From NCBI GenBank assembly GCA_019671135.1, contig JAHRHY010000019.1, forward strand, positions 868,001 to 932,000: a stretch of 64,000 bases of DNA, written 5' to 3'. Position numbers and translations under genes: made by a program. The DNA is from Linnemannia hyalina (Eukaryota > Mortierellomycota > Mortierellomycetes > Mortierellales > Mortierellaceae). The notes under the pieces are model-generated. The model saw only the letters and a list, made by a program, of their open reading frames with translations, had not been told where the DNA came from and ran no database searches. Shown one piece after another: positions 1,747-54,578 of this stretch (the stretch's first letter is position 1; the number at the start of each line of letters is the position of its first letter).

Positions 1747-4249
<2,503 letters not shown>

Positions 4250-4356
4250 TTGTTGGTCCCTATAGATATTTTTTTCTCATTTGATTTCTATCAGTGAGCT
4301 GTCCTGAAGTTCTGTGATCCCTTTGCAAAAATCAACAACAAAGAAATCACAAGAAC

Positions 4357-4362
4357 AATAAA
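4357..4362 (+). terminator. poly(A) signal of glycerol kinase
   Basis: Exact AATAAA about 110 bases after the stop codon, in an A-rich 3' region. Assigned by position and sequence only. Confidence 0.5.
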
Positions 4363-9800: not shown

Positions 9801-10187
9801 AAGAAGACTGGATGCAAGAGTATTTATTACAAGTGTTCTAACAGCACCGCCGGATGCACTGTAAGTTTCCTTGCTCTGGACACTTTGTCACCTGCTGGCT
9901 GTCATTGTTACTATCACAATCGCCTCGTGTCATCGAGCCAGCGTACGAAGTTATGGCAATTGACATTTGAGATTTTATCCCTTTTTTCATTGAAACAGGT
10001 GAACAAGACGGTGACGGAGAAGGAAGGCGGTGGATATTTGACAAAGTACAGAGGCGAACATTTGGAGGACTGCATCCGGCTCAAGAAGGCTCAGCAGGCC
10101 GCTCAGGCAGCCCAAGCAGCAGCAGCCCAGAACGGACACCACCACCATCACCATCCACACGGACACATGTCAATAAAGGAGCAATGA
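6834..10187 (+). CDS. poly-Gln transcription factor with a WRKY/GCM1-like zinc finger
   Basis: Probable nuclear DNA-binding regulator. Three exons (6834-8664, 9409-9860, 9999-10187) give 823 residues. The first ~250 residues are low complexity (Q, S, N, P, H) with several Gln runs. A charged helical block follows at about 258-303 (PDLDTILAKFANQPDLL to YRMMDLIMR), then Gly/Met/Gln-rich sequence. Exon 2 has a basic nuclear-localisation-like patch, YKRKRKRRE (~710). Next comes the finger at about 729-786: DPYLWKNNGN, YYKC, GCTV, and YRGEHLEDC. This matches the WRKY order W-x-x-x-G, YY-x-C, GC-x-V, Y-x-G-x-H, with zinc ligands C-x6-C and H-x3-C and the WRKYGQK heptad altered to WKNNGNT. The intron between exons 2 and 3 splits the finger after the second Cys. 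The protein ends in an Ala/Gln and poly-His tail. Intron 1 is long (744 nt). Confidence 0.8.
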
Positions 10188-13539: not shown

Positions 13540-14078
13540 AGCACCGTTCTGGCGCCCCTGCATTCTCCCCTCTATACAGCACAACTTTATTTAAGAAATG
13601 AAGGCAGCATTGCTAGTACGGGTCCTCGCATACCGCCGGAAAAGAAACCCATACCATGCCCATCATGTCGATGGTGTCGCACGTGATCTGTCTTTCTTTT
13701 CTCGTGCACTTTAACCACCGCATTCCATTGCTCCATAGCAAAGAGGTATACCTACTCGCGTTTTGAAGCTTTGCAGGAGCAATGTAGTTACTTATCATTG
13801 TGCCTGAGGCACAGACAACGGTGAGGAGAAAGTAGCCAAAAGAGTTTCTTCACAGTGAAACGGTATGGTACCAGTAGTTGTAGTGATTGTTCTAGTAAGA
13901 AACGACATCCACTTTTATTGTTTTTTTAAGTTGCATGGAGGAAAAAACATTAAGGGAAAAAACATGAAAGGAAAAACATCAAGGAAAAAAAAGAAAGGGA
14001 ATTTAATGGGTGCGACGCGTGCGGAGCTGATTGGGTGGTGTAAGCGAAAGAACAAGAGCGGGCGAGTCGGTGTCCCGC
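13540..14078. other. intergenic, no gene seen
   Basis: Mixed DNA with short direct A-rich repeats around 13950-13990 (repeats of GGAAAAAACAT type). No protein family could be recognised. Confidence 0.4.
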
Positions 14079-14245
14079 GAACTGCTTTACAAGATTATGT
14101 AGGAACGCTTATTCGTGAGACACCTTGCGAAGAGCTTCGCAAGATTATGTAGTAAGACTGCCTCATTTCGCAAAACGTCTCGCGAAGCGCTTCACAAGAT
14201 TATGTAGGAACGCTTATTGCGCGAAACGTCTCGCGAAACGTCTTG
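14079..14245. repeat. three imperfect tandem repeats of ~50-55 bp
   Basis: The 13-mer CAAGATTATGTAG recurs at 14090, 14140 and 14195 (spacings of 50 and 55 bases). Copies 1 and 3 also share the following AACGCTTATT. Between the copies lie related palindromic elements such as CGTCTCGCGAA, GCGAAGCGCTTC and GCGAAGAGCTTCGC (arms GCGAAG/CTTCGC). The block sits at the left edge of the decayed island. Confidence 0.75.
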
Positions 14246-32742: not shown

Positions 32743-34543
32743 CTAGTTGAGGGTAACGGCCAAGGCGCCAGAGGGGACGAGCTGGAGGTCGTTCAATGTC
32801 TTTTCCAGATCGCTGCCTTCAAGCACTTTCCTGGGGAAGGACGTCATCAGCTTGAAAGCGCCCTGCCGGTGACCCCTGACGAACTCGTACACTGCGCTCA
32901 ACTTGTCCGACGCTTGGAATGCTATTATCATTGATGAAGGAATAGAACAACAAACAATGTGTATTAGACACAGAGGTATGCAAACACGATAGTCGCACTC
33001 ACGACGCGTATACACTCAACCAAACAGACAAAACGAAAAAAACATCCTTACTGTGAACGATGGGAGCTTGGCCCTCAGGCTGACGGATCTGCAGCCTAGT
33101 CTCCGTATAAACCTTCGCAGGTCCAGCCTTGGCGGCTGCCTCAGCTACAGCAACCGCAGTAGCAGCAGCCGCCGCCTGCTGGATCCCCGTCGTAGCCTCC
33201 AGCTTCTTCCGTGCACGTTCCGCCTTGTCCGCATCAATCCTAGCCTTGATCGCCAGTTTGGCCAACCGATCCTGCTCCTTCTCACGCTTCTTGGCCTCGA
33301 TTTGCTTCTTCATTTCCTTTTCCTCAAGACGGAGCTTGACTTCGGTCAGGTCCTGACCAGCTTTACGACGGATCTTTTCAGAGGTCTTTAGGTCTTCCTT
33401 GTCCTGTGCTGCTTTGGCGGCGCGCTTGTCTGCGAGGCGTTGCTTCAGTTCTGCCAGCTTGGCCTGTTTCTCTTCCTCGCTACATGTGGCAGTAGAAAAG
33501 CAACGGTGTTAAAGGGGTTAGTGACGTCTTAATGCAACCAGGAACGGTAACAAACACAAATGCATAGAGATGAAAATGAACCTTTGTTGAAGAAAAAAAA
33601 TATATCAAAAGACGTCACTTACGTCAATGGCTTGATGGCGGTGGTGGACTCTGCAAAGTTAACGTGCTCCGTTCGCATAGCATGTCGTTGAGCGGCTTCG
33701 GCTACAGAAAAAAAAAAGAGGTTGCAATCGTGTGAGCCGAAGGATATTCATTATTATTATTTTTTTCACGCTAATAGCAAAACAATATCCTGTCCCAAGT
33801 CAATGCAATCCCTGAATGTTTACCATCTCTGAGAATCATCTGGCAGTCCTGGCAGATAAGCGACTGTGCAGTCTGTTCACCATCTTGGATCACATCACCC
33901 TCTAAAGAAATTACCACACAAAGAACAAAGGAACGTCAGCAATTAACAAAGAACAAAGGAACGTCAGCTGTTAATCGAGAATGTCCTGGTCATCGCCGTT
34001 TGATACCAAGTCCGCCACAACAATTGATCCTGGCCTTGGATGATTTAAGGCGTACCTTTCTCTGTGGAGTCTTCGTCACCACCAGTTGCAGGGGTCGAAG
34101 ATGCAGTACCGAGCGCGCCTCCGGCGTGTTCGAGGATAGGGTCGTCGATATCGGGGTCTTCTGAGTGCTCCACTAGCCTAACAAAAGCGCATAACAGGGA
34201 AAGAACAAGAACAACGTTTAATCTCAATGCAATGAAAAGCGCATGATGATGCCGCAGTCGTCACGAAAGCGACACCCGAAAAAAAACCCCCCTGCGTTTG
34301 CTCGGTCATATCTAGTGTCCTTTACCAGTCCATGGCGGGTTGGAGTCCTGCGCTCTTGGTAGCTCTTAGTGCCTTGAGACTATAATGTGACACCAGAGAG
34401 AAGGCGACGTTAGTTTCCAGTGCATTTCATTGTCGTGATAGTAGAGAGTTGAGACATCCATGGCAAAAGTGCCAATGAAGGAGTCATTACACTCGGTTCT
34501 TAGGGAAGCCCATTTCAAGGAGTTGGTCAGCGTCGGATGCCAT
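32743..34543 (-). CDS. UBA/C2H2/UBX-domain p97 (Cdc48) adaptor, UBXN1/SAKS1-like
   Basis: Probable adaptor bringing ubiquitylated clients to the Cdc48/p97 ATPase. Seven exons (34543-34491, 34379-34326, 34177-34056, 33901-33824, 33701-33623, 33479-33052, 32921-32743) give 330 residues. The N-terminal UBA domain begins MASDADQLLEMGFPKNRV and ends ..MDWLVEHSEDPD (1-45). A C2H2 finger follows at about 90-120: C-x2-C in LICQDCQ, then H-x5-H in QRHAMRTEH. Next is IKPLTEEEKQAK and a long charged coiled coil (130-240, including IRRKAGQDLTEVKLRLEE). The UBX domain (about 253-330) carries the p97-binding loop TSFPRKVL. The start was chosen because it opens a canonical UBA helix 1. Domain order and length agree with the fungal/plant members that carry an extra finger. 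Confidence 0.93.
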
Positions 34544-35404
34544 GTCTTGTATATGTTTCTAGTAAGAGTTGTAAAAGTGTTGGTCCTGAGTGATGGAGGC
34601 GGGTTGATGAGAAGGAAAGAAAGGTGAAAGAAGGTGTGTCCCAAAGAACAAAAGTTGCGTAACTGGGGAACAAGGGCTATTGCGCGCGTCATGTCCCGTG
34701 ATGACGCGTGACTGCGAATCATCCGAATCCATGGTTGTGGTTGGCCAAATGGACGAGAAACGAACGAACAAGTTGGTGGCAACTGATCAAACATCACTCA
34801 AGCATTTCTGTACGCGACAAAGCTTCTCTTCCTTCCCTTGGTAAACCATCGCCGCCTCAAAAGACTATGTTGTCTATCAAGTGTGGAATATGCATCCACT
34901 CTCTTCCCCTCCTTCTCCTATTGTCATCCACGAACTTTCGAACGAACAAAAAAACCAGCACGCTCACAAAGAATTACCTACCTCCTGTGTGTTCTATCCG
35001 AGACAGCTTACCATGGCACAGAACGAAGAAGGATCTCAGGCCTGACACTACCTATCAACAAGCATTGCAAGCATGGTGAGAGAAAAAGAAAAAAAAAACG
35101 ATGTCTGTGCGGGACAGATCTGAGAGAATGCGATGATCTCAACAGCCCACAACGACTATGGTGTGCAAGCGATGAACCAAAAGTGTAGACGGTTTTGCGT
35201 TTGCGTTTGTGTGTACTTTAATTTTGGTTTTTGTTTTTTTTTTGTGGGTAAGGTTAGGAGAGATCAACAATGCATCCCCTTATGTGCTAATTCAGAGTCG
35301 AACAAAGGGAGTGAAGGGGCTTGCAATAACGTTTGCGCAGTTGCAGAGGTGAAATAAGGTAAGGAAGGAAACATAAAGACAGAACCGATGTTGGAAAGAA
35401 ATGT

Positions 35405-35789
35405 TTAGGTTGATGCACGTATCATTGCGTGTATGAGGAAGAGGAGCAAGAACAATGAGCTAGATGACACTGTGAAAGCAACCCAATAGGACATAGAGTC
35501 GCGCTGTCCTTGGTACCGCTTGTGACTCTACAAAGTGAAGAGAAGAGACAGAATAGCAAAGATATTTATGAATGTCAACTCATGACCTACTTGTTTCTCA
35601 TCAATAATTAGAGGTAGTGCAGTACCCATGGACAGCGCTAATAGAAGAGAGATAATATAGCCACACAATCGAACGAATAAGGATATGAATTAGTTCAAGC
35701 CGCCTCTGGTTCGGAAAATGTACCATTTGGCAGGGATAAGATACTTCTATGGGAACCCCTTCTCGACGCATGCATGGAAATATAGTTCC
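35405..35789 (-). CDS. possible C-terminal exons of a small membrane protein
   Basis: Three minus-strand exons with good splice signals and compatible phases can be drawn: 35789-35724, 35637-35591 and 35527-35405. They join to read ..ILSLPNALSMGTALPLII, DEKQSHKRYQGQRDSMSYW and a hydrophobic end (VAFTVSSSSLFLLLFLIHAM). Intron 35590-35528 (63 nt; GTAGGT..TTTGTAG) is typical of this genome. I could not find a confident start exon. Upstream minus-strand fragments near 36000-36090 (IHESDRKSFMSQIVLGPRG) may belong to it. No family is recognised. Confidence 0.3.
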
Positions 35790-36034
35790 CTGCAGCAGCA
35801 CACCCACCTCAGCATGTACCCTTACTCCAATACTATTGTCTCACTTTCTACTCCTCTTTTTTTTATCTCCTTTCGAAATGCTAAGCACACTGAGCTTAGA
35901 AAAGCAAACCTTGAAGGAGTGAGAGGAATGAAAGAGGCGGATGCAACACGAATAAACTTTCACTTAAAGAATTTCCAGGATGGACCTCTCGGGCCAAGTA
36001 CAATCTGTGACATAAAAGATTTTCGGTCGGACTC

Positions 36035-36280
36035 ATGGATGAAAGGATCTTCCTCGTACCCCTCCTTATCGATACCATTTCAAGTTCCATTGCTGTTATG
36101 CTCGTTGAAGGTTATAGTATCGATGAGAAGCGAAAACTCTATTGCCAGGGAAACCCGCAGTCTGCCAACCAACAAATAGTCCTATCCCAAGACCCATCTA
36201 ATCCTTTGGGTTTTGGTTTCGGGATAGAGAAAAAGAGGGGAGAAAGTGTACCGACCATGTACTATCTTACATTGACCTAG
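36035..36280 (+). other. small open frame, uncertain
   Basis: An ATG-started 81-codon frame with balanced composition and one hydrophobic segment (IFLVPLLIDTISSSIAVMLV) followed by a charged part (EGYSIDEKRKLYCQGN). It overlaps on the opposite strand the fragments discussed for the minus-strand candidate, so at most one is real. Confidence 0.15.
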
Positions 36281-39200
36281 AAAAAGCTAGCCTTCTGCTT
36301 AGTATCTAGGATGAAGGGAAGGGGAATGATTTCTTTGTTTTCTCGATCGAAAGACACGCAGGCTATTTTGTGTTAGTGTCCGAACACAACCGCACCATGT
36401 TCTCTTTTGAGTTGATAGGGACACAAGGGGCTGGATAAGCCAAAAAGGATTGCGTCACGAAGAAGGAAGTGGAGGAACAGACGGGAGAAAAAAGGTGATT
36501 GGTATTGAGGTCCAAGAGAAGAGAGAGAAGGAAAGGATGGAGTAGATCGCCCAATTGAATAGCCCATAAAGTTACAGTTTTTTTTTATTTCGAAACCGAC
36601 TCAACTCCAACCATCCGAACAACTGATGCTCAAATCTTTTTTTTTTGTTGAAGAGCGTTGACTCCTATTCTTCTTTTGTTTTTCTCCATCCATGAAGAGA
36701 GGGTGAGAGAGGATGAGTAGGTTAAGGCACCGCCCCGGATGCCCTTTGGCCTGTCAATTCTTCTTTTTCTTCTTGTGGGTTACTCTATGTGTCGTCCCTC
36801 AACCCCCCCGCTTCGTTCAATAGGATGTCTTCCTTCTCACCCACTTTACTCTACTCTTTTGTTTTCCCTCTCTTGCTCCCTGGCAGGCAGTCAATCACAC
36901 CCTTGAACGAGACACAGCATTTTTCTTTATGTTTGTGCCTCTAATCTGATCGGGAATAAGGCAAACTATGAATTCTCATAGCAACAAAGACAAACCAGCT
37001 TCCCCGCTTTTTTGTTGCCTTTCATTCACTCACACTCACTATCCCTTTCACCAATAGGGTCTCTCAAAGGGACGTACAAGGGAGTATGTACAAAAATCCC
37101 ATCCGTCTCTCCCTTTCTCCTTTCTCTTTCTCTTTCTTACTCTTTCTCTCGCGTCCTGGCGCTCGTCATCTCCGACCAGCCCCTTTCAGGAAATAAAAAG
37201 AGCTACTTCGGGTCTGGTACCTTCCATTTGATAGTTGACCGTCCTATCACCGAATGCCGACCATGTTTTATTTGTTCTCTCGGTTCTCCCCTTCCTCGCC
37301 CTTTTCATCAATTCTAACTACTCGTTGAGCTTTTGTTTGTTTGTTTGTTTTGATCGTGTCAACCGGACAATTACACTTTTGCACTTTTGTGATCTTCTCT
37401 TCTCCATGAATCTTCTTTTTATGTTTATGTGCTAGATACTCAAAACGGTTTCTCGGAAATATCGCATGGTAGGCTATAGTTTGTACACAACACTGATCTT
37501 ATGCCTGACTGGTTCCCTGAAGGTTCCTGATTAATATTTTTGCCGTACGCGAATGGAATTTCTCCTCATTCGCCCATTGTTTTGATTGTTCTTGGTTCTA
37601 TTGTCATACTCATACACGCACGTCTGTCTTCCTTTTCGTTCGCCGACTGGTACGTTCGTTTCTACGACAACGATTAGATAGGTGGAAGAGGAAGGGAGAG
37701 GTCTGATGGATGTTGAGAGGAGGGATTAAGGATCGGATGCGATTCAAAGAAATCAGAAAACAAATGGTTGGTTCGGTTGGTTGGTTCATGGTTGTGGTGC
37801 CTTTCTCATACACTTTAACAAAAGAACACTAGATAATGCTGCATATACATTGGACTGTTACCCTTTTAGATTACAAAGACAGTGTGCTCTCGCAAGCTTC
37901 ACATCCCACCCAGCCCTTACTTCCATCAAAAACAACCAAACTCTCATACGCCACCTTGTCAACCGTGTGGGGAAAAAGTGCGCCAAAAGGGCAGAAAGAA
38001 ATCTGTGTAGGTTAGCGGTGGTCCGAATGACTGGTCACTCGCAAAATGAGAAAACAGCAGAAATATCCAGAAAGAGGTGGGGCACTCTGTCGGAGGTGCA
38101 GTAGGAAGGTGGAGAATGATTGTCCACTCTAGCCTGCTTTTGCTGTGTTTTTCTTGTATTCACTTGTGTGCAGCGTAGCGCTTCCTCCTTTCTCCCTCCC
38201 CTGTCCTCCCTCACGACTCGACCCCACTCATATCTTGGCTTTACGCCCAAAGACTAGCCCTTTTCATGAAATACTCTAGAACAGAATATCCGACCGTAGT
38301 TTCCAAGGGGAAAAAGAGGTAGGCTGCGAGAGCATTCTTCTCTCTCTCCCTCTCACTCTTTTGTGTGGGCTCATGTCCAAAAGCAACATTAAGAGTCTCT
38401 TGTCGCCCTTCCCTCAAGCCACCTCACCCAGCGCCTCTTCCATCCCCTCGCCCTCTGTTGTTCATATCCACCAATCGCGATAACCCTTGAGTAGAAAAAC
38501 AACAATGGTTTGTCATCTTGCAGAAAAAAAGAGAAAGCCAAGAAAAATAAAAGCACAAGGACACCTCCAGACAGGGGGATAGAGAGAGAAAAAAAGGGAG
38601 AAGGAGAGAGCCCTATATTTTGGGTCCGTCTCAATGCAGTAAAAAAATTAATGCAAATGTGCTCTCTCACAGCCGATCGCCTCTGCTTGGTGCCCGGCTG
38701 TATTTTATGCGTTGTCTTTGTCCTCCTTCTATTCATCCAATCACTTCATGCTCTTTTTTCGGTTCTGGATGCAGTCCATTTTTTTTTCCATTCATTTCAT
38801 TTCGCTTCGCATGTTCATGCCGTCTCGGATTCACCCATAATTTGTTTTTGCTTTGCGCCAACACATGGCGTTGAGTTGGAACAGAGGTCATCCGTTCATG
38901 GTACTAGTTCATAGCATTATTTCTCTCGAGGCGTTGTTCAACGTGAGGGTAAACAATGTTTCTTTCTCTTCATCTTCTTTCACCTCTCGTTCTTATCTCC
39001 TTCCCTCCTTACTCCAACCATCTCTTGAGCATGAGCCTTACTCGTCTAACACCTTGTCCCCAGGAGCATGCAGACTCGTTGTTTGCGTTTTCTTTTTGCT
39101 GATCAACCTACAGCTCCAAAGGTACAATCAGTAACTGATAAAACAATTAAAGTTTTCCTTAATTTTTGATTCAGGACGTTTTTTTTAATCACTTAACTTC

Positions 39201-40733
39201 TTTTCTGTCCATCTGCTCACATAAAAACAAAGTGATCGAAGACAGGCAAGTTAAGAGAGACAAACAGGCTTAACGCCTTTTTTTATTTTCCTTGCTTGCA
39301 GGGAGGGGTACATGCAAGGATGTACGCCCTGTTGTGTGTTTTTTCTTTCTTTTTTGTTGATGTTCCTGCTTCTGCTGCGTGCATATGAGCTGAGCAAGTT
39401 GGAGAATACTACTGTATGAGACAGGACAGGCCCGAGGTGTGACAAGGCCATTTTCTTCCTACCCCCATTCTCTTTCTCTCTCTCTCTACCCTTTCCGAGA
39501 GCCACAGAGGAGCCAGGGCTGCATTGCTTAGCGCAAAATGCATCAGGCGCTCTCTGCGCACCTTTTCTTTTCCTACAATCCAAGAGGTGAAAATAAAAAG
39601 TCTAGAGCGTTAAAGATCGGATGCTATTTATTTTCTCCACTCTTCCAGGCAGACACATGCTACCTTTTTTATTAACTTCTGGAGCGTTGCGTAGTCCAGT
39701 CCACATTTATTTTCACGATCAAGGATGCCATGTGCTCAGGGAGAGCCATGAAAGCATGTGTGGGTTGCCAGCATGGAGGATCAAAGGTATAATAAAACAC
39801 ACAACGTCCAAACAAAAAACAAATGCATGCTCGGACGTTCTGGATGATTCCTGACACATAGACAATCCTTCTCCCTTACGAACCATAACCATAGAGATTT
39901 ACCTTTTTCTTCATCCTTCATTTTTCAATGCTCCCTTCGTCTCGCACGCTCTTTTTTTTTCGAGTGAATGAAATATACTTTTGCTTGGGTAGATTAACAA
40001 GCTCTTGCAAAATGAAAAGGGTCAGATGTATCCTCAAAGAGGAAACCATCCACTTCCCACCTCATCCGCCCACTCAGAAAAACAAAAGGGCCAAAGCAAA
40101 GCAAGCAGGTCAGGAAAAAATGGCTCTGCCCATTATTTTTTCCCAAACCTTTTCATTTTTTTTTCCATTGGAATGTACTTCTATCCCTATCTCTCTTGCA
40201 GTTAGTTTGGGCAAGCGCTCTCTTTTTCTTTTTCGTGACAGAAAATCTCCGGGTGGAGGACCTAGACGGGTCCCAATTGTCTTTTTCGAAATTTTCCCAC
40301 AAGCTTCATCCACACCCTACCTTTCCCGACCCCGTCTCGAACCCCCTCTCTCTTTTTCTTTCTCTGCCTTGCCTTGCCAGTCTCTCTGTGGGCTCTTTTA
40401 ATTACTGTACACAAACTAGCCCGGATAGCTGGCGATGGTAATGATGATGATGCAGATAATGCCGGTCCTCTGCCATCTCACAAAAAAAAAAATTACCACA
40501 GGTCCATTGGGTGTGGGAAGTCTTGTTCCCGAACTAATCAATTCTGTCGCTAGCAAGGATTGTAAAAGTGGAGGGGGGTGATGGTCCTAGAACCATGGCA
40601 AAAGGTTGACAAAGCATTTAGCTCACACTAGGCGAACCATCCAGAGGAAGAGGAATAGGAAAAAAAAATTGTGTCGTCATGAAAAACTCTCTTTTTCAGC
40701 CTTTTGCATTCTTCTTTCGACACATCATAGCTT

Positions 40734-40766
<33 letters not shown>

Positions 40767-42597
40767 AGACTGTACAACAAAGGATATGTAACAACAACGG
40801 ATGGTTACATGGATGCATGTCTGTTGTGATCAGTCGGTAGGCTACATTCTGCAACGCAAACATCGAATAAGGGAATTTGCTCCCGAAAGGGGAACAAGGA
40901 TAACCAACAACAACAGCAGAAAACAAACAAAGAAAAAGGGTCCAGAACAGCTCCATTTCTCACTCTTTTTCGCGAAAAACAAAACAGAGCTACAAAAAAA
41001 TAGAAGGGAGAAGGGCTCTCCAAGGCAGAACAAGGGGCAGGCATGCGCTCGAGAAAAAAAAAAGGAAGAAAATCGGTACTCTTTCTTCGGTACCCTCCCT
41101 CTCTAGTGTTTCTCACTCATCCCATCCCTCTTTCATTCGCTTTTTTTTTTTTTTCTCTTTGCCTGCTTGTTTTTCTTACTTGCACTCCCTATCGCTGTTT
41201 ACCTTTTCTTTTTCCTTCATCCATTTTTTTCTCTGACTCCGCTCAAGCATCTTCTCCTCTGGCCCTGCTTCTCCATTGCAGAAGAGAGCAAAAAAAAAAA
41301 CATCCAAGAAAAACGGAGAATTATTTCAAAAGATCCCCAGTCCCAGTCTTTGTCCCAGTTCCAGGCAAAAGGTCAAGAGTCATGCTAATCTTTACGGGGG
41401 CGGGCAAACAAATAATAAAATAAAATAAAATAAAATAAAAAAAAACCAACAAAGTAGTTAACGGTTAACGCTCTCCACTCCTCTTCTTGGCTCTCTCTCT
41501 CTTTCTCTCTCTCTCTCGCTCGTTCTCATTGTCTCTTCGCTGCCTCTCAATTGACCCCGCCCCACCGACTGACACAAAAGAGCTAGCGCGGTTCGTAGCG
41601 TGGAGAGAACAATCATTATTTTCAATAAACGCAATTTACGACAATCCAACCTATCATGGCTGCTTATCTCTTTAACTCCTCCAACTCTCACCCCAACAAC
41701 AATAGCAACGCGATGTTATGGTCTTGGATGAGCACAATTCCTGAAAGGAGTACCTTCATGTTGCTGAAGGGCAAAGGAGAAGGAGGACATTACAATGAGG
41801 ATCCAGCCGGCCCCTGGTGATCTGTGATTGGATCCGCGGAGGTATGAATTATGGCCAAAAAAAAATGAGACCGGGGTTGTCTGTCTCTGAGTTGTTGTTG
41901 TCCTCCTGTTTGTTATCTAACCCTTCCTCCTGGCCCTGGAATGGATCCCCGTCAGGCAACCACCTTCACTTGAAAGAAGTACAAAATTAGAAGGGGGACA
42001 CCCCCTTGGCAATTAGGAGGAAGTGACTGTGGAAAAAAGAGGGCGAATAGCGGACAGGTGGGATCACACCATTTTTCCTTATTGAACAAATCAAGTCGAA
42101 TGGAAGGGTGTGAACAAAATGTGGGTGAAGGGTGGCTATTACGAGAACAATTCACGCCATGTCAATGGTGGACTGAGAAATAGAGGAGGAATAATGTAAC
42201 AGAGCAGTGAGACAAAGGGATGGGTCCATGTGGGGATGAGTACAAGGGAGGAAAGATATGTCTGATTATGCATTTGTTTCTTGCTTGGGCACCTGGTTCT
42301 ATTAAGTGAAAGGGGAGAAAGAGTGCAAAAGGTAAACCGTCGCAGTGTGGGTTGGGTATGTACACTGCTGCAGGTATATTTTCCTGCTGATTGCAGACTG
42401 TTGTCAACAAGTCTACAGAATCACACTTTTTATTCCCCTACCGTAACTAGACTTCACTGAACAACCTTTTCGGCTCATTGCTTTCCCGAGTAATCAAACT
42501 CATAAACTCATACATCCGGCTCCTCCTTGACATCCTCCTACTCCTCCTCCTTTTAACTCTCGATCCACGTCACTCCACTCTTGATCTGTCTGCTCTT

Positions 42598-43301
42598 ATG
42601 TCTCAAAGCCAAAGCAAGAATAAACAAGATGCCGAAGACGAACACACTGCAACCTTGCTTCAACCAAAAGTTTAAAGTAAAAAAATTCCGACAAAGGAAA
42701 CCCTAATTGTGAAGAAGCGTTAACGCAAACAAATCGCTTACGCTGGAAGGTTTGAGTGCATATAAGGATTTTGGCTTCTTCAACGTCCATTCCTTTTACC
42801 ACTCTGTTTCTACCAATCTAGAGTCCACTGACCATTGACGTTTGATGTTCTTGTTTCGCATACATTGGCTTAAACTCCTAGATAACTTCCTATTACTCCA
42901 ATTATCACTCCAAAGGAATGATCACATCCTCATTGTTGTTGATCCTGCTGTTGGCTAGGAACGTCTAGTACCAATTGCCATCAAAAGAGCGCGAGTGAAA
43001 GCGAGTGAGTTGTATGGTTTTTGTTTTCTTCTAGACACCCTATGAGCGTTGATATCCCATCTCATCCCTCCCTTCATTCTGTAGGCAAGAAAAATATCAA
43101 TTGCTTACCGAAGGAAGAAACAATGGGCCAATTGGCGAAATGGTCAACAAGACAGGAGCAGGTAGTGTTGGTAAAGAAAGAAGCGGCACCAATGGACGGT
43201 TGTATCAGAAACATCCTGGGTTCATGAATATTTTTTTCGTCGATCCAATCATGGCAACATTTACCCTTACTCTAACCTTCCCAGTCTTTTACTTATGGTA
43301 A
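42598..43301 (+). CDS. candidate small gene inside the 20 kb region
   Basis: A CT/CA-rich leader (42480-42597) runs into ATG 42598. This opens MSQSQSKNKQDAEDEHTATL, which meets a stop at 42673 unless spliced. A convincing exon lies at 43085-43301 after acceptor TTCTGTAG. It reads QEKYQLLTEGRNNGPIGEMV, then KTGAGSVGKERSG, and ends in a hydrophobic tail FFVDPIMATFTLTLTFPVFY. Composition is protein-like, unlike the surrounding low-complexity frames. The linking intron or middle exons could not be fixed; the donor after the first exon would be the weak GTTTAA. No family is recognised. Confidence 0.3.
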
Positions 43302-46300
43302 GCCAAATCTGCCCTCATGTGCCAACGTTTGCTATCCTGTGAAAAATGACAGAGAGAGGGTAACGAGAGAGGATAACCAATCAAGTATTCGGCCAAACGG
43401 AGAGTTTTGCCCTTCTTTTGCCATTGTAGACAATGTGAATGTGAGGCCGAGGGAGTAATGAGTTATGGCCCTTTGGAGTGAATAGGAGGTTTTTTCCCCT
43501 ATTTGTTGTTTGTTAAGGGGGAGAAAAAAAATGACGTCGATAAAAAATTCTTGTACCTTTGGTGGAGATGCACGGTGAGCAAGCCAGCCCCACTCCCCGC
43601 CCTATTATTTTTCGTCCCGAAATCCTCCTCGCCTCTTCTTTTTCATCTCAGGCCGTATGCCAGAAACCCCACTTCCATCAGACACTTTCGTGAGATTGCG
43701 GGAATAACGCGGTATGACAGCGCTCTTTACTTTTCCTCCCTTGTTTACATTGACATGGTATGTATATTCACCTCCTTCCTTTGCTCTGTTTACAGTCCTA
43801 ACGTTCCCTCTCCAAAGCGCCATGCGACCCATCGTCACTAAATTTTTTTTTCGCCTTCTTGCCCAATGAGTGGTCCTTTGATTTGATTGGCTCGATGTAC
43901 AAATCCAAACTCAGCGGCAGAACGTTGGTCCACGCCAAGAATAAAACAACTTCGACCCTCTGTCTCTTCGGATCTCATTTGGATTTGTTCCCCAGATTGA
44001 TGCCAACACCGCACAAACCCACATAAACAAACAAACAAACAAACAAACAAATAACATACCCCTGGGCTTTGCAAGTTTTGAATAAGGAGAGACACAGTGC
44101 AGACAGACGGATCAATAATGGAAAGAGAGACAACAAGAGGCGGAGAGAGAGAGGGAGGGACAGTTGGGGAAGAAGGATGCAGGCAAGTAATAAACAGCGC
44201 ATACGCATACACAGACAAAGACGACATCAACACCTCGTTGCTGTAATGCACGTCAATTAGTTCATAATAATTAGCAAAGCAAACAACATACATCCTTCTC
44301 TCATTTGCCCACTCTCTCTCTCTCTAACGTACCCACTATTCATATCGAACGGTTATTACAGCAATTTTTATCACATCTTGTATCCATTCGTCCATCCATC
44401 TTGATCTGATGCACTCCCGGTACCATGTCGATAGTACTCGACCTTGTCTGCTTGTCTGCATCGTATGTCGGTCATCTATCCTTTTCTGCTCTTCTATCTA
44501 TTCTCGATGTGCGTCCATCATGCAGTCAACCCCCTTTTCTCGCTCTCTGCTCTCCCTCGTTTTTATTTCTCCACTTCACCTCCCCATGCCGTCGACATCA
44601 ACAATACTACCTGTATTACGCAGTTCCATCTATTACTAGATCTCTCTAGTTTGTTCCTTCTTCCTCTCCGTTCTCTGACAAACCAGTCGGTTAGTCAGTC
44701 CAGATTTGCCACGTTGTGTTTTATTTTCTTTGCATGAGGTTGAAGAAATTTAAGCCGAATTGTCGAGCACACTCATCCAAAAGGACAGAGCTTCTCTCCA
44801 TGTGGCAAAATAAACCCCGATGGGAAACATTTAATTTAAAGGGGGAGGATCGGGATAAACAATCTTGCTTTGGAGGTCTGGAGAGACAGAGGGGAGATGT
44901 GTGCACCTTATTTTATTTTTTTGTTGGCCTGTGTGTTATCGAGACATCGAGGTTCTGGGTAGTGAAGTAAGCATTAGGGGAGGGAAGGGAGGGAAGAGAG
45001 GAGGCTAAAAGTCAAAAAGGCACTTTGAGAAGTGAAAAGGCAATGGGTGAAAAGAAGAATGAACAAGGACGGGAAACTTTCACTGACGTAAGGTTTGAAA
45101 GTCAGTTCCAGGAATGAATGATTTGAAAAACGTTTCTTCTTTCAATGGTACAATGATGACATGGATAAATGGATGAATGGATGAGTGGAGTCGCGCCCTT
45201 TTATGGACTGGATCATTATGCAACTTCGCGTTCTTTGATGGAACGGAGAGGAAAGGTATTGGGCATTGTGAAAGAAACAAGAGAAAACAGGGAGCATTTG
45301 TTGTTGCTGGTGATGGTCGAGGGATATCGAGAATGGGGAGGGGGGAGAACGAACCTTGGAGGAACGGAGCGACAATGCTAATCGCTTTCAACTGTCCCAG
45401 CACTATCGTTCTCCTTTTTGTTCATGCACTTCCCCTTCAACCTAGAGAATAACACATCATCCAAACTCCTCTTCTTTGCTCATCCCCTACTCACTTCTTC
45501 ACCTAGAGGTGTGCTAAGCAAACACACAAACACGCTCACCTCACTCTTCACTCCTCACCCATCCGCATCCCAACTCGAACACCTAACCCTAACCATGTAC
45601 TTCTCATCTATCCATAAATATCTAGAATCCTTTCAAAATCTAGATCTGGGACCTCACTCTTTCCATACCATCGTTTCGTGTTTTTCCAAGGGGTGGAGGG
45701 GTGAAAGGCCAATATGTTACTCTCAGAAAACTTTATTGAAATTGGCAATGAGCAGACACATCCGGGAAAGTGGAAAGGTCCAGCCCATCAAACCAATCAG
45801 CATCCTAGGATACTGTTAAGTTAAAGCGTCCGCACCAAAGAAAAAAAACAAGAAGCGATCAGGGGTGGGGAGGCAAAAAAGGTAAATGGGATGGGATGGG
45901 AAGGATGGATAAAGAGCGTGAGATATGTATGTGGAGAAGAGAGTTTGCATGAACGAAACGATAGAGTCCATGGAAACACAAGGACGCAAGGATGTTTTTG
46001 TCTCTTGGTCAATGTAGTACGAAGGCCCAAGGGCGCAATGTAACAAGCGAGCACAACTAGTGAGAGAAAGGCAGGATCGACAGTCAGGGTTCGTGTTCGT
46101 GTTGTTCGGAGTTTGACGTTGTTGGTTGGTTGTGTATTTCTCCGTTAATGCATTGGAAAAACGTAGGACAATAGGACTAGGGAGTGGATCCAAAGAAAAT
46201 GGCGATGGTTACCCTGACCGAGGTAAGGACATAAACTAGGGAGTCAAAGGGATGCGGGAGTTGTGAACAGAGGATGATGGATCGACCTAGCAAAACAACA

Positions 46301-47358
46301 ATGAGTAATAGCTAGTCTTTTTGGCATCGGCATTGGAACACGCAAGCAAAAAACGTGTACTTGTTCCAGGACGGATGACAGGGCCAAAAAGAAAATCAAC
46401 ACTTTGAAGGACTTCTCTTAGAACGCGTGGTACAACCTACAAACAAACAAAAACAAACAACAACGACATCATTGTTTCTTCGTTTTTCCTTTTACTCCGA
46501 AGAAACAAAAGGGCCAGTTCCCGGGCCAGTGAACAAGAATGGAGTCATCATGAATAAGTAAACGACCGGTCTACTTGTCATTCAAAAAGAGGAGTTCAGA
46601 TTTTTTGGAAAGCAACAGATCGTTAATCCAAAAGGAGTCGTAGCCGAAACGGACAAATGCCTACATGTAACAAAACAAACAAAACAACCAAAACAATAAA
46701 CAGGGGTGAAGAGGCGAAAGCAAAGGGTACTCAATAGGCCATATAAACACGTTTTGTATCTCTTATGTTGTTTGTGAGCAAAATAAAAAGGTAAACAAAG
46801 AGAAAAATCTTTTCTCCAAAGGATGGATGGCTGGAGGGCGAGAAGAATGGATGGAGACGATGGAAAAGGGCAAAGCGACAGAGTGGAGCGGAGAAGGGAA
46901 TTGCGCACGCACAAACAAACAAACAAACAAAAAATACCTCTGCAAGGGCCATGTACAGTGGAGTACAGCCATCCCATTTTTGTCCAACCCAGACCCGAGG
47001 CTCAACCTTCCTTTGCTTGCTTCCCATGCTCGAAGGAAGGAAGGGGAGCGGTCTTTGGAATTCTGCTGGAAATAGATTATTTTCTTTGTTTATGCTCGGG
47101 CCTCTTTTATCACTTCATTACTCAGGTCAAGAGAAAAATGATGGTGAAATCATATGTTAACAACTGACTGCGGGAATGAAGACGCAGATCTCAAAGAGAG
47201 ATGGAGAGATGGAGGAAGCACCAATAAAAAAATTTCATTCTGCTATTAACGCGTCGTGGTTTCGACGATTCATAATGTGGCTGCGTATCGTTCATCGCAT
47301 ATGCACATGATGTTCAAAGACAAACATTTACCGGTGCAACTGACTCTTATTTACAGAT

Positions 47359-48214
47359 ATGAGTGCGAACAATAAGAAGGGATCTAAATGGTTGATCAGA
47401 ACAAGGGAACGCAACAATAAACCAACCCATCTCTATAAAAAAAACGATGGTCCACCTCCCACCTCCCTGATTGATAGACTTGGTCGCGTCACTTTCGCGT
47501 GCAAGAATGTACCTGAATTCCCATCAGGGAGGTTTCATCACTCACTCCCTCTTTTCCTTGTGCAGTTCCTCGTCTCATTCAATGATTACTACGGTATGCA
47601 AGTGTGCCTCCCTATGGAACCTTATTTTTTACGTATCCCTCATTCCCTCCCACCGGCTCCCTCTTTTTTACGTTTTCGAATAATTTGTTCCATCCAGGAC
47701 AAACATAACTGAAGCACAGGTTCCATTGACATCCTCAGTTACTCATTCTAGGAAAGCCCTTCCAAGAAAGAACATCCTCTTTCGAGTTATCCCTTCTTTT
47801 TCTTCTTACAGACGTTCGTTTGTAGAAGATAGAGGTCATTACTTACCCATTCAGAAAGCAGGGAGTGAGTGAGAGCCTGAATGACAGCAATCAATACAGG
47901 ACCCAGACCGGGAGGTGTGACCGATTAACTTGTAGGATGATGATGAACAATATATTAGTCGACAAAGTCGCATTCCATATTTTTGTTGATCAAAAGAATA
48001 ACGTGTACCAGACTTGGTTAGCAAAACAGAGTCAAAACCGACAACAGGCGAATCTATATACCAGAACGACATGGCGAAAAGCGGGGTCGCTCCACGACGT
48101 CGTTTTCGAGAAATGGATGAACGAGAAAATTTAGGAGAATACAAATGCGCGTTCAATTCAAAGAAAGCAACGGGCCTCGGTGTAGTAGCACTCATCATCG
48201 ATTCCTCTCCTTGA
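47359..48214 (+). other. two protein-like small frames, uncertain
   Basis: ATG 47359 begins MSANNKKGSKWLIRTRERNN and stays open for 117 codons. ATG 48071 begins MAKSGVAPRRRFREMDEREN and ends ..SKKATGLGVVALIIDSSP at 48214. Both have non-repetitive composition, but no family, no shared splice path and no transcript evidence are available from sequence. Confidence 0.15.
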
Positions 48215-51200
48215 GCCCCCTTAAAAATATTCCCGGCCAAGAATATCATGATCTCTCTACTCCTTTCGATTCATTCCCTTTTCTTTATGTTCTGATCAGC
48301 AAAAGTATAAAAAATCTCAATGTCCAAAGTTTGTTCCGTACCCTACCCTTGCCTTATCTTGTGAAACGTTCTTGGTAATTGACTTTTTCGATGTGGAGAT
48401 GGAGGAGTTTAACTCTCTGGAAGCTTGGACTATGCACGGATCAAGGAAAGGAGATGGAGATGAGAGGATGTGCAGGTTTTGATAGTATTCGACAGTGTTA
48501 CCGGATCTGTGGGCTATAGGGAGTGAATAGGAAATTGAAACCTGATCAGCAGTCCCTAGCCTCGTCCTCTTTAAGTCTGCGCCACTCCTTCTATCCTCTC
48601 GCTGTACGGCCGGCAAAATATGGAAGGTTTGCATCCGGAATGAAATGAGTGGGTGTCAGAGAAAGGGGGTCATGCGGTAATAAGAATAGTGGGAGGGAGA
48701 AGGAGGGAACAGAGACCGGGGGATTCATGGCCAGTCATGCGTTTAGATGGGAAATGATATGCCCTCTCTTTGTCACAATTTATTATCGCATCGACACATA
48801 TGGGCAGAGAGAAATATCAACAGTGAGGATAGGATGCTTCTCACTCTCCCTCTCTCTTCTATACCCTTTTGGACATTAGATCTATCCCTCTCTATTGTTG
48901 TTGTTTGCCCGGTCGTGAGAAATCGAGATAGGAACTCTCTTTCTTTCTTTTTCCTTCTTTCATTAATTAAAATTGCATGTCCTCCCACAAAACAATGACA
49001 AACTCAGATAGCCATTCTGCCTACCTACATCCCTTTTTGGTTCACATCTTGAAAAGAAAGTACAAAAAATAAAATTCTCCGGAGAAAAAAAAAATGATAA
49101 TCTCTAATTAACGAACCAAGAAAAGGGCCATCTGGACAGGGAAACGACGAGAGGTAAGGAAAGCGAAAAAAGAAAACGAAAAGTGGAAGGGAAGGAAAAA
49201 GAAACAGCGAAACATCCACTGCTAGAAAAAAAAGGGGGGGGGGGGGGAGGAAGAGGCAGAGGGGCGGAATAGGGTGCAGAAATTGATCTTGTTGTTATTG
49301 ATGACCCCTTTGGCCGTGTTGCGTTGGAGGTGTTGTTGACACCAACCCTTGTTTTTTGATGTTTTCATCTTGTTTGCATCCCCGCACAATTAACATGGAA
49401 AGAAGGTCCTTTGGCCAAGGAGCATGTCAATCAGTCTATCCATCGCAGACCGTGAGGCAGCGTGAGAGGGGAGAGAATCAGGTCAAGTGGCCGGTGTTGT
49501 ACTTTCTCTTCATATCGCCCTCCTGCTCTCAGTCTTTTCCTTTTCTCCGGGTTGGGAGTCTGGAGGAATTAATTCAGGATGGTCATCATAAATTAATCTT
49601 ACTTTCGTACGTTCATTGGCGGCAGTCGACATAGTTTCAGCTAACTTTCTCTTTATTTCTTACTCTTTTTACCCTATTCAATAATTGAATAGGGTGGCAA
49701 GTTACAGGTCCATGGGGATCTGTGTTAACGAAGTGTATGAGAGAGGAGCTGCTATTCGTGTTTGTTCAGTTCTCTCCTGAACAGATATGGTGCACGATGA
49801 TGATGAAAGAAAGGAGGAGGAAGGAGCTAGAAGGAGCAGGAAGGAGAGAATAACGAGTGTGTATGTAAGTGTATGGTGTTGAGGTTCCTGGAAATAACAA
49901 AAGAAAGAAAAAACAGGATGATGCACATTATGCACACACAACCAAACAAACAACAACAAAACGGGGAGGGATCCGTCAAGCTGAATATCAAACTGACAAT
50001 CCATTCACAAATGAGCTGCGAATGAATGAGTGACAAAAAAAGGGGGCAGAGATTATCGGCGATGACACTGACTGAATAGAGAATTAGTACGGAGGAAGAA
50101 AGGGACGAAGGTCAGTGGGAAGGAGATCATCATCCTATGACGGGCTAAAAGAAATATTTGTTGTTTTCACAAATAACACAGCGAGTGGAGGACTGACAAA
50201 AGGGATACAAAGGGATGTGCAAACACATACACATAGAGGGAGAGAGAGTGAGAGGGCAAGAAAAAAAAAGGGATGTCAGGGAGGGAGAGGAGATGTTGTT
50301 AACACTTTCTTGGTCCACATCATCGAATCTTTTGGACCTCGAATGCTGCCACTCTTTCTTCTCCTACAACTTACCATACCTTCTCTCCTTCTCTCCTTCT
50401 CTCCACTCTCTCCCATTTTCGTCGTCGCCGTCGTCTCCTGGGCTGTATCCCGTTTCGCCCATCCTATCCGTCATTTATCCTAACATTGTCAGTCCCTTGC
50501 GTTCTTTTTTATCTCACATCGTTGATTCGCACTTTGGTCTCCATGTCGAATGCTGTTGCTTTCTCCTTTGATGCGTCCCTTCCCCTCTTGTTATGAATAG
50601 AACGACGTCGTCATTCTTGCCCGGGAAAATCGAAGTAAGGGTCGTTGGCAATGAGAGAGAGCGAGAGTGAGAGAGGAGAAATAGGGTCCGACCAAAGCGA
50701 TAGGTCAGTCGGTCAGTTAGGTCAAGGACAGACAACTGTGGGTTGAGTGTTGATGTTTTGCTGCTGCTTCTGCTGCTGCTGTTTTGTTGATTGTTGGAAC
50801 GAGAGAGAGAGAGAGAGTGATAGGGAACCAATAGGGATATGGTTCGACCAGGTGGGTATTCAATTCCGAAAAGTTATTGTTTCTTTGAAGGGAAAAAGGG
50901 CACATAGGAATTATTCAGGGACAATTGAATGGGTTAAGAGCTGGTTTGTTGTATATCTGCGATTTAAATACTTAAAGGAAGAGAAGGGCTCGATTCAATT
51001 GAGTCCGAAGGATTTAAGAGTAAAAAAAACCTTTCCAACCGTCCATTCGTCTCTCCGTCCGTCCGATCGGGTGTGTTGTTGCCAATTCTTTCACTCTATT
51101 CTTTCTTTTCTAACATTATATTCATCAATGTTCTTCTCTTTTGGCTCGCTCACACCACATACACACTCCACGCACACACACGCTCTCTCTCTCACACGAA

Positions 51201-52236
51201 CGCTTTCAGTGGTCGGTTTGCATATCTATCAATAACAATGCTTCACTGTGGGTATCTTGTGCGTGGTCTCGTGTGAGTTCATTAATGATGAATTGAAGTG
51301 TGAAAACAAAAGGAAAGAAGGAAGGGGGTCACAGGGAAGGGGTCAGAGTGAGAGCGAGAGAGAGGAACAAGGAAGTAGAGAGAAGGAAGGAGGGATAGAG
51401 AAGGGAGGTAAGGGATTGAAGGAGACAGCAAGAAAATGAAGAAAAACAACAAGAAGAAAGGTAGCGATAGATGAGAGGCATGTGTGTGTATGTAAAAGAA
51501 AGTAAGGGAAGAAGATAAAGAAGTGCCATGCTGTGGACTGTCATTTCATCCGCCTTCTGCTACAAGGCCATGAGTACAGCGTGTCTCCTCTTTCTTTCTT
51601 TTCTGAATAAAAAGGTCGCTGTTCCCCCCCAAAACCTTCTTCTTTTTTACTTTTTTTTTTCTGTTCTCTGTGCCTCAAATACCCAATCCTTCCTCTTCCC
51701 TCCTTCTACTCTTCTCTCCTTTTCTTCTTTTCTTCTTTGTCGATCTACCTTCTTCCCTTTCCTTATCCTTCCTTCTCCTCATCATCAACCTTCATCGCAT
51801 TCTTCATTCCGTCTTTCCCTCTTCTTTACTTCTTCTCTTCTTTTCAATATCTGTTCAGCTACATCAAGAAAAAAAGAGTCGAATCTCGTTCCCTCCTCTT
51901 TCGCATATATAGTTTGTCTCCACCCTTCAACGTTCAAACCATCTTTACTCTTTTGGGTCAACCCTTCAAACACAAACTCCAATTCAGTTTCCCTATTCCT
52001 CCCTTCCCTTTCTCTTTCACTCACTCACTCACTCACTCACTCACTCATCTACTCAACTCCACATCACCAACACTCATTCACTTCCTACGGCACATACCAA
52101 CCAACCAAGCCAACCAGCAAGCAAGTACTCGCTCTTCACTTGTTAATATACCATTCGATTTTCCTCTTCCAGAAAGGCATTTCGATCCCCCTCCTCACTC
52201 CCCCACTCCATCCTTTCACTTGATCCTAGTTTAAAG

Positions 52237-54219
52237 GTAAGGACTACAAACGTTTTGTGATTACAGTTACGTCTTACTTTCAATTGTGACATATGACTTG
52301 GGGGGGAGGGCCTTTTCTCATTTTTTCTTACGTTTACTTTCTTCGATATCAATTGCGATTGATCGGATTCCGAGTGGCATGGGGTGTATGTGAGCAAGAA
52401 AAGAAAAAGGAAAAAAAGGGGATGAACAACACCTGTTTTTGCTATGTGTAAGGAGAAGTGTACAGTACAAAGTGGATGTATGGGTACGAGAGTGTGTTGT
52501 TGCTGTAGGGTTATGTCATGTTGCAAAAAGGAAAAAAAGCGGTGGCCTGGAAGGAGCCTCCCTATTGGTTCCTTTCCCTCGGAATCGTAGAGGGAAGTTC
52601 AAAAAAAAAGAGAGGAAACACAACAACTCAACTGAGTAACAGAGTAAGAATGAAAGCACAAAGAGACACAGGGGTGGAGTATGGCCCTTTCTGTTCACTT
52701 TCTTCTACGATGTAATACAGTCGAGTGGGCAATGGCTTACCCAGAAAGGAAGGTCCACCCTTTCTTCCCTTCCTTGTTTGCTCTCTCTTCTCCTCTTATC
52801 CACTCGTTGCCCTGGGTGATCTCCCATTGGCTGATGATCGTTGCTGCTGCTGCTGCTCCACCCTCTCCTCTTCTCTTTCTCTTTCTCTTTCTCTTTCTCT
52901 CTTCCCTTCTTTGTGTTCGCTGCAATCCTCCGACAGCTTTCCATCCTAGTCTAGACTCCATTTCTTCTTTTTCTATTGCTTCGCGCCCTTTACTCACTCT
53001 ATCTATTCATTCCTTCACTCTAACCCACCATTCATACTACACCCGCTACTCCTTCGTTTTCACCTCGTCTAGTCTTTCCTCCTCCTTCCCGTTTTTTTTT
53101 TTTTTGTTTTGTTTTGTTCACCCCTTGTCCATCCCGCATTCGTCCCTTTCGATCTGATCTTGTTCGCCTTTCTTTCTTTTTTACACTTCTTACCCGCACC
53201 CCCTATCCATGTGCGAAATGCCCGATCGATTTGCGTTGCGAAAGGGGGGTCAAATGAGAGGGGAGGGTGCTGTAAGTGAACTAGGGCCCAAGTGGGAAAA
53301 AGAAAGGGCGGAGGGGAACCTGTTACACGCATGCCATTGCTGGCAAAACAAAATAGGTAAAAAAAATGAATAAGAGGAACGACCAATTGGGGGTTGAGCT
53401 TTGAGGTGGAGAAAAGGAAAGGGAGATAGTGTGCGTGCGTGTGAAGAAGAACAAAAAGGAAAGCAAAAAAAGAAGAAAAGAATACAGTACAGCCCACACG
53501 AAATTCCAGTTGGTCTTCCAGGTGTTGGTGATTTATTTGTTTTGGATGGATTGGAGGGGGTGGGGGGGGGGGGGGGAACGGATGCATGGCATTGGGCATT
53601 GGGAGTTGAGAGCACCGGTGTGTGATGTTTGCTTGCATGTCTGTCAAAAGAGGATAGGGATGAGGCCGATTAAGAAAGAGTACAAAAAAGCTGAAATACT
53701 TCAGACAACAAGGAAAGGAAGGAAGGAAGGGATAAAAAGGCGAAAAGGGAAAAGTACACCAAAACAACACAAAAGGGGTTTGAAAGAGTGCAAGAGAACA
53801 TCGAAGACACATCCAACCAGCCAGCGTCCGATTCTCCCGAGAAGAGGAAGCAAAGTGTAATGGGCGAGGGAGGTGGAAGACCAAGAAGGGGATAAAATAA
53901 CGGAAGAAACGACAAAGAAAGAAAAAGCAATCGTCATCGTCGGATGGTCGGGTCTTTCTTTGTGTACAAGAGGAGCGAAGCAGCAGACAGGCAGATATAA
54001 GTCATCCATTGCACTCGCTTGTACAAATACAACAAGCCATCCGCCCCTTCCTCCCTTCTTCCATCATCAACACAAACAAACAAAAGGACAATCAGCAATC
54101 AGCTCAAGTTGATTTCAAATACCTCTTCTTTTTATTCTTTGTTCATTACCACCCTCGTTCTCTTTTTTTTTCTTCTTTCTTCATCACTTTTCGTTTTCTT
54201 CATCACTTCCCCCCTTCAG
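52237..54219 (+). other. possible leader intron of the WOPR gene
   Basis: A CA-rich, leader-like stretch (51950-52236) ends with a good donor, AAAG|GTAAGG, at 52236/52237. A strong acceptor, CCCCCCTTCAG, ends at 54219, and CT/CA-rich leader sequence continues from there to the ATG at 54579. A spliced untranslated exon is therefore plausible. This is inference from splice-site shape only. Confidence 0.25.
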
Positions 54220-54578
54220 TTATATCTTCCTTGGATATTTACTCCGTTTTTCCGTCCCCATCGGTTCCCCTTTTCCTTACCTTCTCATGGGCCAAAAGTA
54301 GAGCCTCCGTCCCTAACCGCTCTCTCACTTCTCTCTCTTCCCTCTTCAACAGCTTGCTGACGCATATAAACCGGATCCTCCGACCCTGTTTGCAACAGCA
54401 ACAACATCCTACTCAAACACACACCCCACTCTAAAACCAAACTCAACCTAAAAGCAAAAACTCTCCTTCCCTCCCAAACCTTCGACCCTCTTTTTTCTTA
54501 TACATACTTTACCTTACACCATTCCAGCCACACGCAGCAACCTTACTCCCTCCCTATAACAACAACAACACCTCCACA

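What the first reader, a model, noticed from the sequence alone, without database searches (positions are those of the whole stretch)
34544..54578. A 20 kb region with no conserved gene lies directly upstream of a WOPR master-regulator gene
Seen: no conserved gene from 34544 to 54578, while other gaps here are 0.2-2.5 kb; composition is low-complexity with several promoter-like CT/CA stretches and no transposon coding sequence. Known: WOR1 of Candida albicans has one of the longest intergenic regions of its genome (about 10 kb), a long 5' leader, and is bound by its own product in a switch circuit. Inference: an early-diverging fungus may use the same architecture, implying an ancient bistable control locus. 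A centromere or a cluster of non-coding RNA genes is the main alternative.
Basis: partly seen in the sequence, partly recalled or inferred. Interest (0 to 1): 0.75.

Follow-up and report, generated by a model that had tools for sequence, protein, structure and literature searches.

The report
Giant control region before WOPR gene
In a Mortierella-type fungus, about 20,000 bases in which no protein gene could be detected lie in front of a WOPR regulator gene, and they are likely an oversized control region of a kind that this fungus also keeps in front of several other regulator genes.

Summary
About 20.4 kb (window 34172-54578) carries no detectable protein, tRNA or known RNA gene and no repeat matching elsewhere over more than about 70 bases. 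It ends at a WOPR gene (474 aa, two exons) and has ordinary intergenic composition.

It is not unique. Of five WOPR loci in the genome, four have long coding-free upstream regions (20.4, 10.2, 8.3, 5.7 kb); the fifth has 1.4 kb. The four form two duplicated pairs that kept the length but no alignable sequence. Among 51 gaps examined, all 6 over 5 kb lie upstream of a WOPR gene (4) or at a GATA-factor locus (2). Three of five homeobox genes have over 6 kb; three metabolic controls have other coding sequence within 3.5 kb.

Pyrimidine tracts pointing towards the regulator crowd its side of the long gaps. Here a second, distal island lies 13-19 kb upstream.

Best reading: an oversized upstream regulatory region of a developmental regulator, as known at WOR1 and ros1. 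A WOR1-style self-binding switch has no motif support (1 site, 0.7 expected) and stays untested. A centromere and spliced RNA genes are not supported. No unbiased genome-wide background could be fetched.

The parts
34172..54578 (.). coding-free upstream region of the WOPR gene, about 20.4 kb, shared with a divergent left neighbour
54579..55182 (+). WOPR gene, exon 1 (whole Gti1/Pac2 domain)
   Evidence: Pfam E 5.6e-61; Wor1 structure 4qtj E 4.7e-30; splice donor read
55183..55844 (+). predicted intron of 662 bp (GTAAGT ... CTAAC ... AG)
   Evidence: sequence; the joined frame stays open and matches Podila protein P0003 across the junction
55845..56665 (+). WOPR gene, exon 2: tail of 274 residues, 74% Q, N, S, G, P, H, Y, T
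51635..54192 (+). proximal pyrimidine island, 9 tracts on the WOPR sense strand (4 on the other strand); predicted promoter and 5' leader
35844..41527 (+). distal pyrimidine island, 11 tracts on + (one of them a plain T run), 2 on -; predicted distal promoter or non-coding transcription unit pointing towards WOPR
   Evidence: the 7.4-kb + tract-free stretch between the islands has p 0.0005 under uniform placement
39147..39155 (+). the only TTAAAGTTT (Wor1 motif, recalled) in the gap
33002..34170 (-). divergent left neighbour, exons only partly resolved; looks UBX-like to the eye (recalled; no Pfam match)
   Evidence: coding segments; no Pfam family for its ORF 33002-33508

Best explanation
The 20.4 kb in which no gene was detected is likely an oversized upstream regulatory region of the WOPR gene, predicted to gather many transcription-factor inputs and to feed a pyrimidine-rich promoter and 5' leader in its last 3 kb. 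Shown: no detectable gene and no repeat over about 70 bases; a long upstream gap at 4 of 5 WOPR loci and at several other regulator genes; length kept in both members of two duplicated WOPR pairs; the pyrimidine-tract signature leans to the regulator's side. Inferred: that the DNA is bound and active, that its length serves regulation, that the leader is long, and that the distal + strand island at 35.8-41.5 kb starts a transcript or acts as a distal promoter. The S/P/H/G/Q-rich tail of the protein would fit condensate-type action as described for Candida regulators, untested here.
For: Gap confirmed. Upstream coding-free lengths at the five WOPR loci: C11 (window) 20.4 kb, C33 10.2 kb, C50 8.3 kb, C44 5.7 kb, C48 1.4 kb. 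C11/C50 and C33/C44 are duplicated segments with shared neighbours. Of 51 gaps in 264 kb, 6 exceed 5 kb: 4 upstream of WOPR, 1 upstream of a GATA factor, 1 between a Q-rich exon next to the paired GATA gene and a thioesterase-like gene. WOPR 4 of 5 against 2 of 46 others, p 0.0003; without the window's own gene 3 of 4 against 2 of 46, p 0.002. Homeobox: 3 of 5 over 6 kb. Aldehyde dehydrogenase controls: 3 of 3 have coding sequence within 1.8 kb, though in one it may be the gene's own first exon, the next being at 3.4 kb. Sense pyrimidine tracts in the first kb: mean 2.9 at 9 long-gap regulator loci, 1.07 at 28 other genes with 1-5 kb upstream, one-sided p 0.0007; the divergent partner's side of 6 of the same gaps averages 0.67. 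Printed parallels: WOR1 and ros1 with six self-bound regions.
Against: No sequence conservation between the paired gaps; fourfold-degenerate sites of the C11/C50 pair are near saturation (41 of 87 same, 34% expected at random), so this is uninformative rather than negative. No k-mer sets regulator gaps apart from ordinary intergenic DNA after allowing for the number of tests. Wor1 motif not enriched. Exceptions: WOPR on C48 (1.4 kb), homeobox on C8 (under 1 kb) and on C2 (weak coding at 1.9 kb, clear at 5.8 kb), velvet (3.7 kb) and a WRKY-like pair (2.9 and 4.0 kb). The nine loci of the tract comparison were those with long gaps; short-gap regulators were not among them, and C48 WOPR and the WRKY-like genes sat in the comparison group. 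No expression or chromatin data.
Confidence: 0.66

Rival explanations
1. Passive spacer: intergenic DNA that grew by drift in a gene-poor spot, with only the first 1-3 kb functional.
For: Composition and k-mers are ordinary; no conserved element between duplicated gaps; length differs about 1.8- to 2.5-fold within WOPR pairs.
Against: Long gaps are not scattered: all 6 of 51 over 5 kb sit at regulator loci and all 6 are divergent; homeobox genes chosen without knowing their gap length repeat it in 3 of 5.
Confidence: 0.17
2. WOR1-type autoregulated bistable switch region: WOPR protein binds throughout the 20 kb and locks its own expression.
For: Same protein family as Wor1; ros1 and WOR1 regions are self-bound.
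Against: One Wor1 motif in 20 kb with 0.7 expected. Long gaps occur at non-WOPR regulators too. Specificity could have drifted, so this is weak negative evidence.
Confidence: 0.1
3. One or more long non-coding RNA genes, including one from the distal + island at 35.8-41.5 kb.
For: Two separate pyrimidine islands on + with a 7.4-kb tract-free stretch between them.
Against: Intron-like signals are at the level of the null: 14 on + and 10 on - against 11.4 and 14.7 (the pattern finds 19 of 39 junctions inferred from the coding model). No Rfam family. Unspliced RNAs are not excluded.
Confidence: 0.12
4. Centromere.
For: Long gene-free stretch.
Against: Single-copy, no transposon or satellite; G+C 0.44, like the other gaps at 0.43-0.45; several similar gaps in one genome, one of them on the same contig.
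Confidence: 0.02
5. Missed protein genes (small, fast-evolving or many-exon).
For: The coding model is home-made and short exons score low; no RNA data.
Against: Nothing above null in 20 kb, no convincing Pfam family, no intron excess.
Confidence: 0.05

Closest known systems
WOR1 upstream region, Candida albicans (Ascomycota; PMC2924316, passages seen)
   Same: Master WOPR gene behind a very long upstream region; the paper gives a 2-kb 5' UTR and about 6 kb of Wor1-bound intergenic DNA.
   Different: Here about 20 kb; Wor1 motif not enriched; binding and switching untested; homeobox genes and a GATA locus also have long gaps.
ros1-UMAG_05850 intergenic region, Ustilago maydis (Basidiomycota; PMC4917244, passages seen)
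   Same: Long intergenic region at a WOPR gene, with six Ros1-bound regions and suggested autoregulation.
   Different: 6 kb between UMAG_05850 and a putative gene before ros1; binding shown by ChIP there, not here.
Long upstream regions of developmentally regulated genes in yeasts (PMC5559454, passages seen)
   Same: The paper cites long upstream intergenic regions for hypha-specific genes of C. albicans and developmental genes of S. cerevisiae.
   Different: Those are yeasts; here a Mortierella-type fungus, with the length kept after segment duplication.

Membership tests
WOPR (Gti1/Pac2) transcription factors | Complete two-lobed WOPR domain | tested here: met
   Pfam PF09729 positions 1-168 of 168, E 5.6e-61; Wor1 4qtj and YHR177W 4m8b chains matched
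WOPR (Gti1/Pac2) transcription factors | DNA binding in vitro | not testable with these tools
   no experiment
WOR1-type autoregulated switch locus | Unusually long upstream intergenic region | tested here: met
   20.4 kb, the longest of 51 gaps
WOR1-type autoregulated switch locus | Multiple WOPR binding sites in that region | tested here: not met
   1 TTAAAGTTT against 0.7 expected; WTAAAGTTW 3 against 1.3 (motif recalled from the Candida literature, and this protein's own motif is unknown)
WOR1-type autoregulated switch locus | Long 5' leader | not testable with these tools
   only indirect: pyrimidine tracts out to 3 kb
WOR1-type autoregulated switch locus | Bistable, heritable expression | not testable with these tools
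   needs single-cell expression
Regional centromere with repeats | Repeats or transposons in or around the core | tested here: not met
   single-copy, only short tandem arrays
Regional centromere with repeats | CENP-A chromatin | not testable with these tools
   no ChIP data
Long upstream regions of developmental regulators | Excess upstream length at regulator genes over other genes of the same genome | tested here: met
   small sample, not genome-wide, with exceptions named in the Against line

The most novel reading that the evidence does not exclude
WOPR genes have carried giant, super-enhancer-like control domains since before the Mortierella lineage split from Ascomycota and Basidiomycota: the length is held by selection through segment duplication while the sequence turns over completely, and in this fungus a distal start site 13-19 kb away drives a non-coding transcript or an enormous leader into the WOPR gene.
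Probability: 0.22. Interest if true: 0.72.

Novelty: new member of a known kind. Interest (0 to 1): 0.43.

Why it matters
Long control regions at master regulators are described for yeasts and a smut. Finding such gaps at WOPR, homeobox and GATA loci of a Mortierella-type fungus, with the length kept after duplication, suggests that fungi outside the Dikarya also use large, input-rich promoters for development. It gives four sister WOPR loci of graded upstream length (20, 10, 8, 6 kb) plus a short one (1.4 kb) in one genome, which makes 'does length matter?' directly testable.

Tried and rejected
Motif enrichment: TTAAAGTTT and variants, forkhead-, E-box-, GATA- and AP1-like words (motif names recalled); none specific to WOPR gaps. 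k-mer enrichment of 9 regulator gaps against ordinary intergenic DNA: best p values about 1e-4 to 1e-3 among 1883 to 6619 tests per word length, i.e. nothing. Phylogenetic footprinting between duplicated gaps: nothing beyond short chance-level matches, except a conserved block upstream of C33/C44 that is WOPR exon 1. Intron scan: a first pattern was too strict (4 of 40 inferred junctions); the relaxed one gave no excess. Dating of the C11/C50 duplication by a 28-row WOPR tree (26 of the 120 listed homologues plus C11 and C50): unresolved; C50 groups weakly with Dissophora ornata and Lobosporangium. Comparison of the orthologous locus in other Mortierellomycotina: not possible, no fungal contigs were on hand; the homologue list shows related proteins but no context (best 120 of 884 listed). 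KilA-N search: 4 weak hits, not followed. The first homologue search timed out and was repeated with the exact exon frame.

Counting caveats: the C33 gap reads 12.1 kb and the window gap 21.1 kb because weak first exons fell under its threshold or were not modelled; 10.2 and 20.4 kb are the corrected figures. The C11 GATA gap is 19.7 kb in that table but 15.6 kb if a weak segment is counted, and the Q-rich exon beside it may or may not belong to the GATA gene. If a WRKY-like pair (below Pfam cut-off) is counted as regulators, 6 of 9 regulator gaps exceed 5 kb against 0 of 42 others. The homeobox gap on C1 ignores one 39-base segment scoring 17.
Full report
What was checked. The WOPR protein's nearest named relatives are from Podila, Linnemannia, Dissophora and Mortierella, 92-94% identical (best 120 of 884 listed), so a Mortierella-type fungus is confirmed at protein level.

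The gap. A fourth-order codon-periodic model, trained on 74 kb of long open frames from blocks of C11, C33, C44, C48 and C50, finds no coding segment above its null between about 34170 and 54558. 149 open frames in or overlapping the gap give one Pfam match, DUF1218 at E 0.0025, while the WOPR frame scanned with them gives 5.6e-61. There is no tRNA and no Rfam family. DNA searches of the whole genome return the region itself and fragments of 31-70 bases only. G+C is 0.44, like other gaps.

The gene. Exon 1 (54579-55182) holds the whole WOPR domain. A 662-bp intron with GTAAGT, CTAAC and AG leads to exon 2 (55845-56665); the joined frame stays open and matches a Podila protein across the junction. 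The product has 474 residues, and 74% of its 274-residue tail is Q, N, S, G, P, H, Y or T. Among solved structures it matches Candida Wor1 best (E 4.7e-30).

Sister loci. The genome has five WOPR loci. Coding-free upstream lengths are 20.4 kb (C11, window), 10.2 kb (C33), 8.3 kb (C50), 5.7 kb (C44) and 1.4 kb (C48). C11 and C50 are duplicated segments: they share a GATA factor, a thioesterase-like gene, a WRKY-like gene and the WOPR gene (91.7% over 204 aa). C33 and C44 share GPP34 and WOPR among others (family names; the thioesterase and WRKY matches are below their Pfam cut-offs). In C50 the other shared genes are inverted relative to WOPR, and the left neighbours of the C11 and C50 WOPR genes do not match each other, yet a long gap stayed with the WOPR gene. 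The paired gaps cannot be aligned. Fourfold sites of the C11/C50 pair agree at 41 of 87 against 34% expected at random, so loss of alignable sequence is expected even for functional DNA with turnover.

Is it special? In 264 kb with 56 gene models and 51 gaps, six gaps exceed 5 kb. All six are divergent: four upstream of WOPR genes, one upstream of a GATA factor, one beside the paired GATA gene. No gap on the downstream side of any gene exceeds 5 kb (0 of 51). WOPR 4 of 5 against 2 of 46 gives p 0.0003; leaving the window's gene out, 3 of 4 against 2 of 46 gives p 0.002; duplicated loci are not independent, and the blocks were chosen around WOPR genes. Six more regulator genes were then taken from family searches: 5 of the 11 homeobox matches, all from the top six by score (the one on C33 was left out), and the best of 15 velvet matches; 10 kb was fetched for each. 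Homeobox genes on C1, C23 and C3 have at least 9.3, 7.9 and 6.2 kb without coding sequence (C1 apart from one 39-base segment); the one on C2 has weak coding at 1.9 kb and clear coding at 5.8 kb, the one on C8 under 1 kb, velvet 3.7 kb. Three aldehyde dehydrogenase controls, picked from the 17 matches (several per gene), have coding sequence within 1.8 kb; in one of them that may be its own first exon, with the next at 3.4 kb. Long upstream regions thus look like a leaning of regulator genes in this genome, not a private feature of this WOPR gene.

Internal anatomy. Pyrimidine tracts (at least 28 of 30) are about nine times commoner than in simulated sequence in this gap, 22 on + and 13 on -. 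At nine long-gap regulator loci the first kilobase carries 2.9 sense tracts on average, against 1.07 at 28 other genes (one-sided p 0.0007) and 0.67 on the partner side of six of the same gaps. The signature therefore points at the regulator; I infer promoter and leader. In this gap the + tracts form two groups, 35.8-41.5 kb and 48.9-54.2 kb, the second densest from 51.6 kb on, with a 7.4-kb + tract-free stretch between 41.5 and 48.9 kb (p 0.0005 under uniform placement). The distal group is on the strand that reads towards WOPR, not towards the left neighbour (11 against 2). Intron-like signals are not above null on either strand.

Mechanism. The best-supported reading is an oversized regulatory region that collects many inputs for a developmental regulator and ends in a long pyrimidine-rich promoter and leader. 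Binding, activity and leader length are inferred.

Known parallels. WOR1: a 2-kb leader, about 6 kb of Wor1-bound DNA, and Wor1-bound gaps five times longer than typical (PMC2924316, passages). ros1: six self-bound regions in a long gap (PMC4917244, passages). Promoter regions P2, P3 and P4 of WOR1 are each needed for commitment to the opaque state (PMC8546583, passages). Unusually large regulatory regions and prion-like domains are described for Candida white-opaque factors (PMC12333994, passages). Long upstream regions of developmental genes in yeasts are cited in PMC5559454 (passages). Searches of the held library for WOPR with Mortierella found 0 papers, and WOPR with Mucoromycota 3, none on this subject judging by titles and abstract starts; most subscription papers are not held.

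Verdict. A real and well-placed observation, an interpretation that is half right, and a known kind of architecture in a new lineage, with an unusually good natural series for testing it.

Noticed in passing
window 38420-38454: A 35-base stretch inside the gap matches 17 other places in the genome at 97%, at least 10 of them 18-50 kb from a contig end: perhaps a fragment of a subtelomeric or dispersed family.
   Followed up: no
contigs C11/C50 and C33/C44: Several gene pairs are shared between these contig pairs (GATA, WRKY-like, thioesterase-like, WOPR; GPP34, WOPR), and further GATA matches lie on the same contigs, suggesting large-scale duplication in this genome.
   Followed up: partly
C11:844088-863822 (L025-L027, left of the window): A second coding-free stretch of 15.6-19.7 kb on the same contig, between a Q-rich exon near a GATA gene and a thioesterase-like gene.
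   Followed up: partly
window 9252-10184: WRKY-like domain in a fungal gene, below the Pfam cut-off (17.9 bits against 21), with a well-conserved paralogue on C50.
   Followed up: no
window 14072-14237: Array of 3.2 copies of a 55-base unit.
   Followed up: no
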